From contig DVDT01000088.1 in assembly GCA_015296085.1 (NCBI GenBank), positions 1 to 37,541 of the forward strand: a stretch of 37,541 nt of DNA. Reading direction: 5' to 3'. Positions 23,983-26,613 of the stretch are shown piece after piece (the stretch's first letter is position 1; each line of letters starts with the position of its first letter). The DNA comes from Trichormus sp. M33_DOE_039 (GTDB taxonomy: Bacteria; Cyanobacteriota; Cyanobacteriia; Cyanobacteriales; Nostocaceae). Under the pieces are notes generated by a model that was not told where the DNA came from, searched no databases, and saw only the letters and a program-made list of their open reading frames with translations. The position numbers and the translations under genes are program-made.

Positions 23983-24207
23983 TTAGTAGACACTAGTTGC
24001 AGTATCACTTTTAACTAAAGCGACTGCTTGTTTGAGGGCTTCTACTCGGTCTACAAACATATGATGTGCTGGTACAAATCTAGAAACGCCAAAGTTTTCT
24101 AAGCGGCGTTTGACTTTGCCTGTTGCACCGACTATGAGAACGTGACGACCCTGCTCAGAAGCATCTTTGATGGCATTCTCAATAGCTAAAGAAGCTAAAT
24201 CATGAGT
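23983..24207 (-). pseudogene. 3' remnant (STAS domain end) of a SulP/BicA-type transporter gene
   Basis: On the reverse strand, codons from 24207 to the stop at 23983-23985 read THDLASLAIENAIKDASEQG, then RHVLIVGATGKVKRRLENFG and VSRFVPAHHMFVDRVEAL. This is the helix-strand pattern of the C-terminal half of the STAS domain of SulP anion/bicarbonate transporters. A stop codon lies immediately upstream in frame (24208-24210), and the matching 5' part is found at 26317-26613. About 390 codons between them are missing. It lacks a start and cannot make a transporter. Confidence 0.8.
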
Positions 24208-24319
24208 TTAAAGCGATCAAGGTTAAGGGTTTGAGGGAGTCATAAAACTGCTAGGGGTATGAAAAAGGCAGCCAAAGGACGGTCATGCTTTGGATGCAGT
24301 TCCCTGGATCGAGACAAGC

Positions 24320-24418
24320 TCAGTTGTCAGTGAGTGACATGGGTGAATAGATGTTTAGATTATCTTGAATCACAGTCAGCTTCTCTGCTTGGGCATCATC
24401 TAAATCGACTAACGTTTT
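24320..24418 (-). pseudogene. Degraded IS630-like transposase fragment
   Basis: The reverse strand reads TLVDLDDAQAEKLTVIQDNL followed by NIYSPMSLT and a stop. This resembles the IS630-family segment around the second catalytic aspartate (VVxDNLNTHxPxSLY). Only about 30 codons match and no other part of an IS630 element is seen. It lies between sbtB and the SulP 3' remnant, at the edge of the foreign segment. Confidence 0.5.
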
Positions 24419-24480
24419 GAGTAACGACCACCAAAAAGCCGGGATCATGACCCAGTTTCTTAGGTCTGCATCGTTTCGAT

Positions 24481-24813
24481 TCAACAGCCGTCTGGTCCAC
24501 AGAAAGTTCTCCCGTACAGTACCTCTGCTTCACAGATATAGATAATGCCCGCATAATCGGTGAAAAACTTCATTGCGACCTGATCCGCGATATTCTCTGC
24601 CATCTCCCGATTTTCGGTGAGTACCTCGAACTTTACATTGGAATCGGTGTCGGCAGTGTTGGGTTTACCCGTAGAGCGCACGTTGCGACTGCCTTTACCG
24701 CCAGTATCCACCACCGTATAACCGGTCGCCCCAGCTTCGTCAATGATCTTGGCGATCTTTTTCAGCAGAACCTTTTCCGTGACGATGACGAGCTTGTTGG
24801 CTTTCTTGGCCAT
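24481..24813 (-). CDS. sbtB: SbtB, PII-like regulator of the SbtA bicarbonate transporter
   Basis: SbtB is a trimeric PII-like protein that binds cAMP and adenine nucleotides and inhibits SbtA. The 110-residue sequence shows the ferredoxin-like PII fold: [20 protein letters not shown], then [20 protein letters not shown] in the T-loop region, and [20 protein letters not shown]. It ends in the C-terminal CGPDGC motif, a redox-sensitive hairpin in known SbtB proteins. The gene follows sbtA by 86 bp and has AGGAGG a few bases before its ATG. Base composition is more G+C-rich than in the flanking genes, as for sbtA. Confidence 0.94.
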
Positions 24814-24899
24814 GTTTGGTTACCTCCTTACATAATGTATATCGATCTACTTGGTCTGTCGGGTCAAGAGAGTGCCGACAGACAGCGACCCGTCTGGGA

Positions 24900-26009
24900 T
24901 TAGCCGCCGATCGCCTGAGCGAGTCCGAGGAAGAACGGTATACACAAGCCAATCGCAACTGGCGTACCGACGGCTGTGGACGCGCCTATATAGGCGGATG
25001 GATTGGCTGATGGGATACCGGCTCGCAAGGTGGGCGGACCTGAGATGTCGGAACTAGAGGCAGCAATCACAGCCAGAACCACGACACCGCCCATGCTGAA
25101 TCCCGCCAATTTATGGGCAATCATACCGAGACCGAAGGCAATTAACCCATGTACAAACGGTGCTACCACACTATACACGACGTACCACTGGGCTACCTTA
25201 CGCAGTTCGCCAACCCTTGACCAAGCTTCCATACCCATAACCAGCATCAAGATCGAAAGCAAGCCGCGAAAGGCGGGATCGTAGAAGCTTTTATAGACAC
25301 TTTCCGGTTGGGTGAACAGTCCAAGAGCAAGGCCTAACAACATTGCCGATAGGGCAGGGCCCCGGAGGCTTTCCTCGATGATCGGCCATATCTTGACGCG
25401 ATTATCCTCATCTCCCTTCTGCTGGCTGAGATACTCCTGCCGACTGCTGGGATAATCTTTTTGATCCGGATAATCGCCAGCCGCAACAGGCTGCCCAGGA
25501 GAGTAGACTGCTTCTTTACGCTTCTTCTTGTTGATGTAAATGTTAGCCACCACAATCGCAGTGACGAGCGCGGGGATATCCATGAAGGGATAGAGTGCGC
25601 CAGCCCATGGCTCGTATGCCATCTTTTGTTCTTCCAATACTGTCAGAGCGGCAGCCATGGTAGAGCCACTCACGGCACCAAACAAACCCCCGGTCGCGAT
25701 CGCATCCACGGTTTTGACCTTCGGCATCTTGGCTAATGTATAGCGCGCGATGAATACAATCGTAATCCCTGTTATTACAGCAAAGATCATGGGAAAGACC
25801 ATAGCCACCAGGTTGGAATTGCGGATCGCAATTCCACCGGTCAGACCGATTTTGGTGAGCAGCATGAAGACGATGATCGTACAAATCGCCTCTGGAATTA
25901 CCAATTCGCTACCAAGGGCGGCAATAATCATACCGCCAATCAGAAACGCAAGCGTTGGGGACTGCAACTGTTTAACGAAGTCCATCAAAAAAAAGGACAA
26001 AAAATCCAC
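24900..26009 (-). CDS. sbtA: SbtA, high-affinity sodium-dependent bicarbonate transporter
   Basis: SbtA imports bicarbonate with Na+ at the plasma membrane as part of the CO2-concentrating mechanism. The 369-residue protein closely follows the Synechocystis SbtA as I recall it (374 aa): MDFLSFFLMDFVKQLQSPTL at the start, TKIGLTGGIAIRNSNL, then KTVDAIATGGLFGAVSGSTM. After the cytoplasmic linker (KKKRKEA to QQKGDEDNRVKIWP) come MGMEAWSRVGELRKVAQWYV and SSSDISGPPTLRAGIPSANP. Start: the GTG at 26009 has AGGAGG five bases upstream and gives the expected N-terminus. The frame is open further upstream (to 26315), but that part is a SulP fragment. G+C content is visibly above that of the resident genes, indicating transfer from another cyanobacterium. 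Confidence 0.95.
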   Translation of the reverse strand: MDFLSFFLMDFVKQLQSPTLAFLIGGMIIAALGSELVIPEAICTIIVFMLLTKIGLTGGIAIRNSNLVAMVFPMIFAVITGITIVFIARYTLAKMPKVKTVDAIATGGLFGAVSGSTMAAALTVLEEQKMAYEPWAGALYPFMDIPALVTAIVVANIYINKKKRKEAVYSPGQPVAAGDYPDQKDYPSSRQEYLSQQKGDEDNRVKIWPIIEESLRGPALSAMLLGLALGLFTQPESVYKSFYDPAFRGLLSILMLVMGMEAWSRVGELRKVAQWYVVYSVVAPFVHGLIAFGLGMIAHKLAGFSMGGVVVLAVIAASSSDISGPPTLRAGIPSANPSAYIGASTAVGTPVAIGLCIPFFLGLAQAIGG

Positions 26010-26025
26010 GAATGCCTCCTTGTTT

Positions 26026-26041
26026 CTCCTCTGACGAGGAG
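26026..26041 (-). promoter_or_regulatory. Hairpin next to the sbtA ribosome binding site
   Basis: CTCCTC (26026-26031) and GAGGAG (26036-26041) form a 6-bp stem with a 4-nt loop, five bases before the AGGAGG of sbtA. On the mRNA either CUCCUC arm could alternatively pair with AGGAGG and hide it. Candidate translational control. Confidence 0.5.
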
Positions 26042-26056
26042 TATTGCAATAAATGA

Positions 26057-26070
26057 ACTCTAAAGAGTTA
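26057..26070. promoter_or_regulatory. Palindrome upstream of sbtA
   Basis: AACTCT-AA-AGAGTT is a 6-bp-arm palindrome 48-61 bp before the sbtA start. It could be an operator; the known inorganic-carbon LysR regulators bind less symmetrical T-N11-A sites, so the match to them is weak. Confidence 0.35.
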
Positions 26071-26129
26071 AAGAGAGTCAGAGTGAGGCGGTTCACCCCT
26101 ACAGCACAGGTGTTGCACGAGAACGTGTA

Positions 26130-26315
26130 GACAGGGCTTACGGTCATTAGCCTGGTCGGTTCAGCGATCAGCGTTAGAGTACCGCCACACAGGGCAGCAA
26201 AAAAGCAGCCACAAACTGCTCCATAAAGTCGAGCGAGTGAACCCAACTCAAAGGCAACGCCGAAAGCCAGAGCCAGGGGTAATGAGACAACGGCAGCCGT
26301 GACACTGCTGAAGAT
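26130..26315 (-). pseudogene. Second SulP 5' fragment, in frame upstream of sbtA
   Basis: The reverse frame reads EIFSSVTAAVVSLPLALAFG, then ARLYGAVCGCFFAALCGGTL and TLIAEPTRLMTV. It parallels residues of about 16-75 in the resident SulP fragment (DLFGGLTAAIVSLPLALAFG, then GIYGAVCVGFFAALFGGTPT). It has the higher G+C content of the sbtAB segment, and its conserved prolines and glycines are partly altered. It is open in the sbtA frame, so a 5'-extended SbtA reading is formally possible. This is a relic of a different SulP gene brought with the sbtAB segment. Confidence 0.7.
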
Positions 26316-26316
26316 C

Positions 26317-26613
26317 TCAAACCATCGCTAAACCAGTTTTCTGGTCGCCACCAGCTAAGGCAGTCATAGAACTGACAATTGCAGTCATAACTACAGTCAT
26401 CGGCCCTGTAGGTTCAGAAATCAGGGTTGGTGTACCACCAAATAGTGCTGCAAAAAAGCCAACACACACAGCACCATAAATACCAGCTACAGGCCCGGCA
26501 CCAGAGGCGATACCGAACGCTAAAGCTAGCGGTAGAGAGACAATTGCGGCAGTTAAACCACCGAATAGATCCCCTCGCAAGTTTCTAAAATTGATCGTAT
26601 TGGTCAGTGCCAT
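26317..26613 (-). pseudogene. 5' remnant of the resident SulP/BicA-type bicarbonate transporter gene
   Basis: The 98-codon frame begins MALTNTINFRNLRGDLFGGL and continues TAAIVSLPLALAFGIASGAG and PTLISEPTGPMTVVMTAIVS to GGDQKTGLAMV. It is the N-terminal part of a cyanobacterial SulP transporter of the BicA-like group (Na+/HCO3- symport). It stops abruptly at the join with the foreign segment, where a complete protein would continue into further membrane spans and a STAS domain. AGGAAC precedes the ATG, so a truncated 98-aa product with two to three spans may still be made. The distal end of the gene is at 23983-24207. Confidence 0.82.

What the first reader, a model, noticed from the sequence alone, without database searches (positions are those of the whole stretch)
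23983..26613. A SulP/BicA-type bicarbonate transporter gene overwritten by an sbtA-sbtB bicarbonate uptake module
The first ~97 codons (26317-26613) and last ~74 codons (23983-24207) of one SulP transporter gene lie in the same orientation, 2.1 kb apart. The central ~390 codons are gone. In their place sits a G+C-richer segment with sbtA, sbtB, another SulP 5' fragment and an IS630-like scrap. One inorganic-carbon transporter appears to have been replaced by another of higher affinity at the same locus. SulP fragments at the boundary suggest recombination through shared SulP homology rather than simple insertion.
Basis: partly seen in the sequence, partly recalled or inferred. Interest (0 to 1): 0.78.

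Follow-up and report, generated by a model that had tools for sequence, protein, structure and literature searches.

The report
Bicarbonate transporter gene swapped in place
In this Nostoc-like cyanobacterium the gene for one bicarbonate pump (BicA) has been cut open and its middle replaced by genes for a different bicarbonate pump (SbtA with its regulator SbtB), and relatives suggest that such swaps have happened more than once.

Summary
A 2,122-bp insert (24197-26318, G+C 50.6% in a 40.6% window) replaces codons 98-488 of a native 558-codon bicA. A same-genus genome (G010) has an intact bicA at the syntenic place; the remnants match its two ends at 95% and 93%. A whole-genome search finds no other SulP gene. 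The insert is one contiguous piece of a cassette seen in other cyanobacteria: bicA 5' stub (codons 15-74), ~130-nt sbtA leader, sbtA, sbtB, and the sbtB-nhaS3 spacer, cut at the first codon of the cassette's own nhaS3. Both joints are sharp and out of register, so simple homologous exchange did not make them. A bicA 5' stub lies upstream of sbtA, same strand, in 37 of 97 distinct sbtA loci examined and in 0 of 97 control stretches. Trichocoleus and a Nostoc clade show comparable insertions with other breakpoints. The leader looks like a three-hairpin RNA; in 59 genomes all 21 matches lie upstream of sbtA, and no Rfam family fits. Incomplete bicA beside sbtA is already published for Microcystis, so this is a new variant of a known kind. 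Shared promoter and operon logic is inferred.

The parts
26614..27270 (-). Native upstream (promoter-side) region of bicA, retained
   Evidence: Contiguous 78% nt alignment with G010 (L063) and G009 (L064) from 27270 to 26319
26319..26613 (-). Native bicA 5' remnant, codons 1-97, open, followed by a stop just past the joint
   Evidence: 95% aa to G010 BicA; 88% nt, nearest neighbour G010; dN 0.029, dS 0.58
24197..26318 (-). Inserted cassette, 2,122 bp
   Evidence: Homology switches at 26319|26318 and 24197|24196; G+C 50.6%
26139..26318 (-). bicA' stub of the cassette (codons 15-74 of a different bicA)
   Evidence: Nearest to cassette stubs of other cyanobacteria (L121, L100, L162, L136; 82-84% nt), weak branch support
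26010..26138 (-). sbtA leader, putative three-hairpin RNA; last hairpin at 26026-26041, Shine-Dalgarno at 26015-26021
   Evidence: Covariance model match 26007-26138, 140.5 bits (the window is one of the model's rows); pair counts; conserved in 85 of 101 loci
24900..26009 (-). sbtA, 369 codons, GTG start
   Evidence: PF05982; PDB 7cye Slr1512/SbtA, E 2.5e-194, over residues 1-368
24481..24813 (-). sbtB, 110 codons
   Evidence: P-II family; PDB 3dfe E 8.7e-67, 6wue and 5o3p (SbtB) E 3e-57 and 5e-57, all over residues 1-110
24197..24480 (-). Cassette sbtB-nhaS3 spacer with a terminator-like inverted repeat (by eye) and an unconfirmed IS-like stretch; ends at the start codon of the cassette's missing nhaS3
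   Evidence: 86-88% to L158, L159, L153 and L162 up to 24197/24198
23983..24196 (-). Native bicA 3' remnant (G010 residues 489-558, end of the STAS domain, native stop)
   Evidence: 90% nt and 93% aa to G010 from 24196; dN 0.032, dS 0.45
22279..23694 (-). Native nhaS3-type Na+/H+ antiporter, intact
   Evidence: PF00999; 93% to the antiporter next to bicA in G010, 75% to the antiporter next to sbtAB in G010 and G008

Best explanation
A strain of this Nostocaceae genus that had bicA-nhaS3, like its relatives, received a piece of a bicA'-leader-sbtA-sbtB-nhaS3' cassette, most likely from another cyanobacterium. End-joining-like recombination put the piece inside native bicA and removed codons 98-488. 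The result is one operon-like row: native bicA promoter, bicA stubs, RNA leader, sbtA, sbtB, native nhaS3. SbtA would then do the bicarbonate uptake, held in check by SbtB, while the NhaS3-type antiporter restores the sodium gradient that SbtA uses. SHOWN by sequence: the replacement, its joints, the absence of any other SulP match in the assembly, and similar arrangements elsewhere with other breakpoints. INDICATED: that it is recent relative to the split from G010. INFERRED: foreign DNA as the source, transcription from the bicA promoter, and selection for the slot between bicA promoter and nhaS3.
For: Intact bicA-nhaS3 in the same gene order in G010, G009 and G007, and with fewer flanking genes in view in G005 and G011. 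Joints: native homology ends at 26319 in G010, G009 and G001; cassette homology starts at 26318 in G008 and at 26223 in the stub of G003; spacer homology with cassettes ends at 24194-24199 and native homology starts at 24195 or 24196. G000 (completeness 100) has only the two 5' SulP fragments of this window as PF00916 matches. Remnant dN/dS (0.05, 0.07) is like that of the intact antiporter (0.07), so decay has hardly begun. Tree: outer piece beside G010's bicA (support 66), inner piece among cassette stubs (low support). Recurrence: bicA stub upstream of sbtA in 38 of 101 loci (37 of 97 after removing four duplicates), 0 of 97 control stretches. Other insertions: Trichocoleus FACHB-40 (bicA to about codon 100, stub, sbtAB, bicA from profile position 446, antiporter) and L082/L108/L109/L111/L134/L170 (stub, sbtAB, bicA from position 105 with a gap between about 154 and 519, antiporter 85-86% like the native one). 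SbtA and SbtB are full length.
Against: No expression, uptake or read-level data. The terminator-like repeat after sbtB could separate nhaS3 from sbtAB. The sbtA leader may hold its own promoter, which would make the bicA promoter irrelevant. 60 of 97 distinct loci show no detectable stub (two of them have under 400 bases upstream, and five have a whole bicA upstream instead), so sbtA does not need one. The 80 named loci were the best 80 of 239 confirmed relatives, so 37 of 97 is not a phylum-wide rate. Antisense bicA hits upstream of sbtA (L118, a whole bicA; L152) show that the same-strand order is not universal. For Trichocoleus I did not test whether both outer bicA pieces come from one gene.
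Confidence: 0.8

Rival explanations
1. Assembly chimera: reads of a bicA-nhaS3 locus and of an sbtAB locus were joined wrongly.
For: Draft genome of 116 contigs; out-of-register joints with little homology.
Against: A chimera should leave the other halves elsewhere. The assembly shows no PF00916 match to the bicA middle and no second full nhaS3-type gene (only a 57% decayed piece on contig C105 and paralogs at 24-30%). A similar architecture occurs in Trichocoleus FACHB-40.
Confidence: 0.06
2. Same insertion, but the donor was the strain's own second sbtAB locus, such as G010 still has, which was later lost.
For: G010 carries a separate sbtA-sbtB-antiporter locus whose SbtA is 95% identical to the window's (L080).
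Against: The G010 locus has no bicA stub that I could detect and matches the spacer only in pieces (79% and 86%), whereas the window's stub and whole spacer match L158, L159 and L162. The window genome has no second close SbtA, only a 29% paralog.
Confidence: 0.15
3. Tandem route: an intact bicA already stood in front of bicA'-sbtAB (as in Nostoc parmelioides, Fortiea and Snowella) and a deletion fused bicA codon 97 to stub codon 15.
For: The tandem state exists (L081/L112, L104, L119) and would explain the 5' joint in one deletion.
Against: It does not explain why the native 3' end of bicA and native nhaS3 lie downstream of sbtB and why the cassette stops at its nhaS3 start codon; a second event would be needed.
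Confidence: 0.12
4. Homologous recombination through the shared SulP stub.
For: The cassette carries a bicA stub; in L134 the stub is 97% aa identical to G010 BicA up to position 74, as exchange inside the stub would give.
Against: In this window the joint is codon 97 to codon 15 and two stubs remain in tandem; the 3' joint has no SulP homology.
Confidence: 0.1

Closest known systems
Microcystis Ci-uptake genotypes (Sandrini et al. 2014, not held; seen only as cited in passages of PMC4840274 and PMC4419860)
   Same: Strains have bicA, sbtA with no or incomplete bicA, or both on the same operon; bicA-nhaS3 operon. Our loci L115 and L129 (stub) and L131, L139, L144 (whole bicA, then sbtA) are Microcystis examples.
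   Different: Here the host is of the Nostocaceae, native bicA remnants lie on both sides of the insert, the cassette's own stub lies inside, and both joints are mapped; recurrence across orders and a leader RNA were not in the passages read.
SbtA-SbtB of Synechocystis (Slr1512-Slr1513; PDB 7cye, 7cyf, 7egl)
   Same: SbtA aligns over 368 of 369 residues, SbtB over all 110.
   Different: Genomic setting: inside a bicA gene and in front of nhaS3.
Yfr1 small RNA control of sbtA (passages of PMC6202907 and PMC11782454, citing Nakamura 2007)
   Same: sbtA mRNA is a reported sRNA target; the leader arm CTCCTC/GAGGAG and the Shine-Dalgarno sequence could take part in such pairing (my inference; Yfr1's CU-rich motif is recalled).
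   Different: No conserved structured sbtA leader is described in the passages read; Rfam gave no real hit here. PMC7368042 (passages) lists sbtA among predicted targets of another sRNA, Yfr28.

Membership tests
BicA (SulP family) for the outer remnants | SulP transmembrane domain PF00916 plus STAS PF01740, complete | tested here: not met
   Only codons 1-97 and 489-558 remain; it is a broken gene derived from a BicA, not a BicA
BicA (SulP family) for the outer remnants | Linked to an nhaS3-type Na+/H+ antiporter | tested here: met
   PF00999 gene directly downstream, 93% to that of G010; the name nhaS3 is by analogy with passages of PMC4419860
SbtA | Sbt_1 domain PF05982 and full-length match to a characterised SbtA | tested here: met
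SbtA | Na+-dependent high-affinity bicarbonate uptake | not testable with these tools
   Needs an uptake assay
SbtB | PII-like family, full length, C-terminal CGPxGC, gene next to sbtA | tested here: met
   the alignment to 3dfe ends in CGPDGC; the importance of that loop is recalled
Microcystis-type 'sbtA strain' (sbtA present, bicA incomplete) | No intact bicA in the genome, sbtA present | tested here: met
Structured cis-regulatory RNA for the leader | Compensatory base changes keeping the helices | tested here: inconclusive
   68 rows: four of five measures reached by 0/500 shuffles, the fifth by 8/500; cells paired 81% against 43-53% when slid; but pairs with double changes (16) are matched by slide -2. 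33 rows: 0, 1, 0, 4, 0 of 500; double-change pairs (8) again matched by slide -2. The shuffle numbers are not probabilities
Known Rfam family for the leader | Match above the gathering score | tested here: not met
   Search of 23500-27300: one hit only, to the lncRNA family NEAT1_2, 16.8 bits against a gathering score of 60, E 2.7

The most novel reading that the evidence does not exclude
The unit leader-sbtA-sbtB, often with a vestigial bicA 5' stub, is a horizontally moving transporter-exchange cassette of cyanobacteria. It repeatedly lands in the slot between a bicA promoter and nhaS3 and brings its own RNA control element, a three-hairpin leader whose last hairpin (ACUCCUC/GAGGAG) and Shine-Dalgarno sequence form a translation switch, possibly read by the small RNA Yfr1.
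Probability: 0.35. Interest if true: 0.75.

Novelty: new variant of a known kind. Interest (0 to 1): 0.56.

Why it matters
Which bicarbonate pumps a cyanobacterium carries bears on how it fares at low or high inorganic carbon (Microcystis genotype shifts in passages of PMC4840274). The joints here let one see such a swap at base resolution. The recurrence makes it testable whether the bicA-nhaS3 locus is a general exchange site rather than a Microcystis peculiarity. The sbtA leader, if a true RNA switch, adds a control layer to a transporter that is used in attempts to improve plant photosynthesis (titles listed).

Tried and rejected
Considered and dropped: the remnants as two separate functional genes, or as two different SulP families (they match one gene's two ends). 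The IS630-like scrap as the cause of the insertion: it comes with the cassette spacer in L158, L159, L162 and L153, and Pfam called nothing in 24320-24484 at E 0.001. It has no second copy in the genome. A fused SulP-SbtA protein from the in-frame 448-codon ORF: L136 and L082 have stops in this frame and an AAGGAGG-type site before sbtA is conserved. Pairing of CTCCT with the Shine-Dalgarno sequence: 96% of cells pair but without covariation above shuffles, so possible but unsupported. RNAalifold alone found only the last hairpin. The DNA stub model ends at codon 75 by design, so stub ends are taken from the full-length protein profile: 20 of 32 distinct stub loci end at profile position 72-77, the other 12 elsewhere (20 to 101). 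Literature: the listings of searches showed no title or abstract start on this arrangement outside Microcystis; most listed papers were not opened, and Sandrini 2014 is not held. No structure predictions were run.
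Full report
What is there. On the minus strand the window reads, in order: native bicA upstream region, bicA codons 1-97 (26613-26319), a second bicA 5' piece (codons 15-74, 26318-26139), an untranslated leader (26138-26010), sbtA (26009-24900, GTG start behind AAGGAGG), sbtB (24813-24481), a spacer (24480-24197), the last 70 codons of bicA with its stop (24196-23983) and an intact antiporter of the nhaS3 kind (23694-22279). The name nhaS3 is by analogy with the bicA-nhaS3 operon in passages of PMC4419860.

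The native gene. In G010, of the same genus, the order PEP-synthase-like gene - cupin - o28312 - o27519 - bicA - antiporter - acetyltransferase - bioB - aroB is that of the window, but bicA is whole (558 codons). The window's outer pieces match its residues 1-97 (95%) and 489-558 (93%). G009 and G007 agree in most of this order; G005 and G011 show fewer of the flanking genes in the fetched stretch. Upstream of the break, DNA homology with G010 and G009 runs from 27270 to 26319 at 78%. (The gene names cupin, acetyltransferase, PEP synthase, bioB and aroB are by eye.)

The joints. In a search of 13 same-genus genomes (own included; 9 had a match) with 25950-26613, native matches end at query base 295 in G010, G009 and G001, and cassette matches begin at 296 in G008 and at 391 in the stub of G003; G003's whole bicA also matches 296-474, because its bicA is of the kind from which the stub derives. 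So the joint is 26319|26318; in other genomes matches end earlier. At the other side, spacer matches with cassette loci end between 24194 and 24199, most at 24197 (L158, L159, L153 and L171 over the whole spacer at 81-87%; L162 to 24198 at 88%), and the native matches with G010 and others begin at 24196 or 24195. In L162 and L158 that place is the start of their own antiporter gene. I see no useful homology at either joint.

No second copy. A PF00916 search of the whole assembly (completeness 100, 116 contigs) finds only these two 5' fragments; 50 of 59 genomes searched, this one included, have a PF00916 match. A search with the antiporter finds one full match, a decayed 57% piece on contig C105 and paralogs at 24-30%. 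This argues against a misassembly. The remnants look young: dN/dS against G010 is 0.05 (5' piece) and 0.07 (3' piece), the intact antiporter 0.07.

The insert is a recurrent cassette. I surveyed 101 sbtA loci: the window, 20 regions around sbtA from relatives and the 80 named loci returned as best of 239; four are duplicates, leaving 97. Of the 60 without a stub, two have under 400 bases upstream and five have a whole bicA there instead (L131, L139, L144, L146, L147). Antisense hits occur in two (L118, a whole bicA; L152). By a full-length protein profile 32 distinct loci have a stub, and 20 of these end at position 72-77. In a tree of codons 15-74 the window's outer piece sits beside G010's bicA (support 66; 88% nt) and its inner piece among cassette stubs (82-84% nt, nearest whole bicAs 80%), with low support within that group.

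Other insertions. Trichocoleus FACHB-40 (L136, Leptolyngbyales) has bicA to about codon 100, a stub to 74, sbtA, sbtB, bicA from profile position 446, antiporter; its outer 5' piece is 94% nt like a whole Symplocastrum bicA (L164), but I did not test that both outer pieces come from one gene. Six loci (L082, L108, L109, L111, L134, L170) share stub, sbtA, sbtB, bicA from position 105, a gap between about 154 and 519, and an antiporter 85-86% like the window's native one (in L109 over 372 of 471 residues). The breakpoints differ from the window's, so I count three separate insertions into a bicA in front of an antiporter. In L081/L112, L104 and L119 a whole bicA stands in front of the stub; in Microcystis L131, L139 and L144 a whole bicA stands directly in front of sbtA, and in Microcystis L115 and L129 only a stub does.

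One slot, several states. Within the genus the stretch next to the acetyltransferase gene holds bicA-nhaS3 (G010, G009, G007, G005, G011), an inverted stub-sbtAB-antiporter (G008), an inverted bicA-stub-sbtAB-antiporter (G003) or the window's hybrid. G010 has a second, separate sbtA-sbtB-antiporter locus without a detectable stub (L080), so an own-genome donor is a rival to a foreign one; the window's stub and whole spacer match L158, L159 and L162 better than they match L080.

Movement. Stub DNA of Trichocoleus (L136) and of NIES-4073 (L162; titled Scytonema, now Kalymmatonema, Nostocales) is 97% identical although both stubs are frameshifted, while fourfold sites of sbtA are 87% identical. 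L162, L113, L099, L100 and L138 share a block of about 600 bases or more (upstream, stub, start of leader) at 89.5-93% against L162, with sbtA fourfold sites at 62-81% between them. The open reading frames upstream differ among the four of them I listed (L162, L113, L100, L138); L113 and L099 share their surroundings. Transfer with recombination explains this best; constraint on the block is not excluded.

The leader. It is matched in 85 of 101 loci, in 45 of them over nearly the whole model and in the rest only in part. A covariance model built on 33 rows finds, in 59 genomes, one match in each of 21; all 21 lie upstream of sbtA on its strand, 19 within 31 bases of the SbtA match and two at 230 and 615. 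That search used strict filters and scored 54 candidates a genome. 28 of the 59 genomes have a close SbtA (67% or more), so 7 of those 28 lack the leader by this search, and none of the other 31 has it. Twelve of the 21 contributed rows to the model; nine did not (G008, G010, G018, G022, G032, G039, G048, G051, G052). Three helices: on 68 rows 81% of cells pair against 43-53% when slid, the covariation score is 0.215 against 0.08-0.15, and four of five measures are reached by no shuffle (the fifth by 8 of 500); but the count of pairs with double changes (16) is equalled by one slid version. A second alignment of 33 rows gives 89% against 45-55%, 0.169 against 0.08-0.12, shuffles 0, 1, 0, 4 and 0 of 500, and again one slid version equal in double-change pairs. 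I call the structure likely, not proven. Rfam has no real match. Yfr1 control of sbtA is reported in passages of PMC6202907 and PMC11782454; any link to this leader is my inference.

Known and new. PMC4840274 (passages) describes Microcystis strains with sbtA and no or incomplete bicA, and both genes on one operon, citing Sandrini 2014, which is not held. The listings of searches showed no report of the double-remnant insertion or of recurrence in Nostocales. I therefore call it a new variant of a known kind.

Noticed in passing
window 26007-26138 (minus) and other sbtA loci: Conserved sbtA leader with three probable hairpins (85 of 101 loci); in 59 genomes all 21 matches lie upstream of sbtA; no Rfam family.
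   Followed up: partly
L159, upstream of sbtA (-910 to 0): Stub and a full leader, then about 400 bases, then a second leader and sbtA: one sbtA module seems to have replaced another.
   Followed up: no
L099, L100, L113, L121 upstream of sbtA: Leader present in two partial copies with a stretch between them, as if a stub-bearing block had been joined onto another sbtA upstream region.
   Followed up: partly
L106, L107, L122, L126 upstream of sbtA: A stub of only about the first dozen bicA codons joined to the end of the leader.
   Followed up: no
G000 contig C105:49657-49980: Decayed piece (two stops) of another antiporter, 57% to the window's nhaS3-type gene.
   Followed up: no
window 5121-6272 and 36073-37332: ORFs that look like transposases (an IS4-like one and a TnpB/IS200-like one), judged by eye from the translations.
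   Followed up: no
L140 downstream of sbtB: A second, partial sbtA (residues 6-94 and 97-120 at 74% and 71%) directly after sbtB.
   Followed up: no
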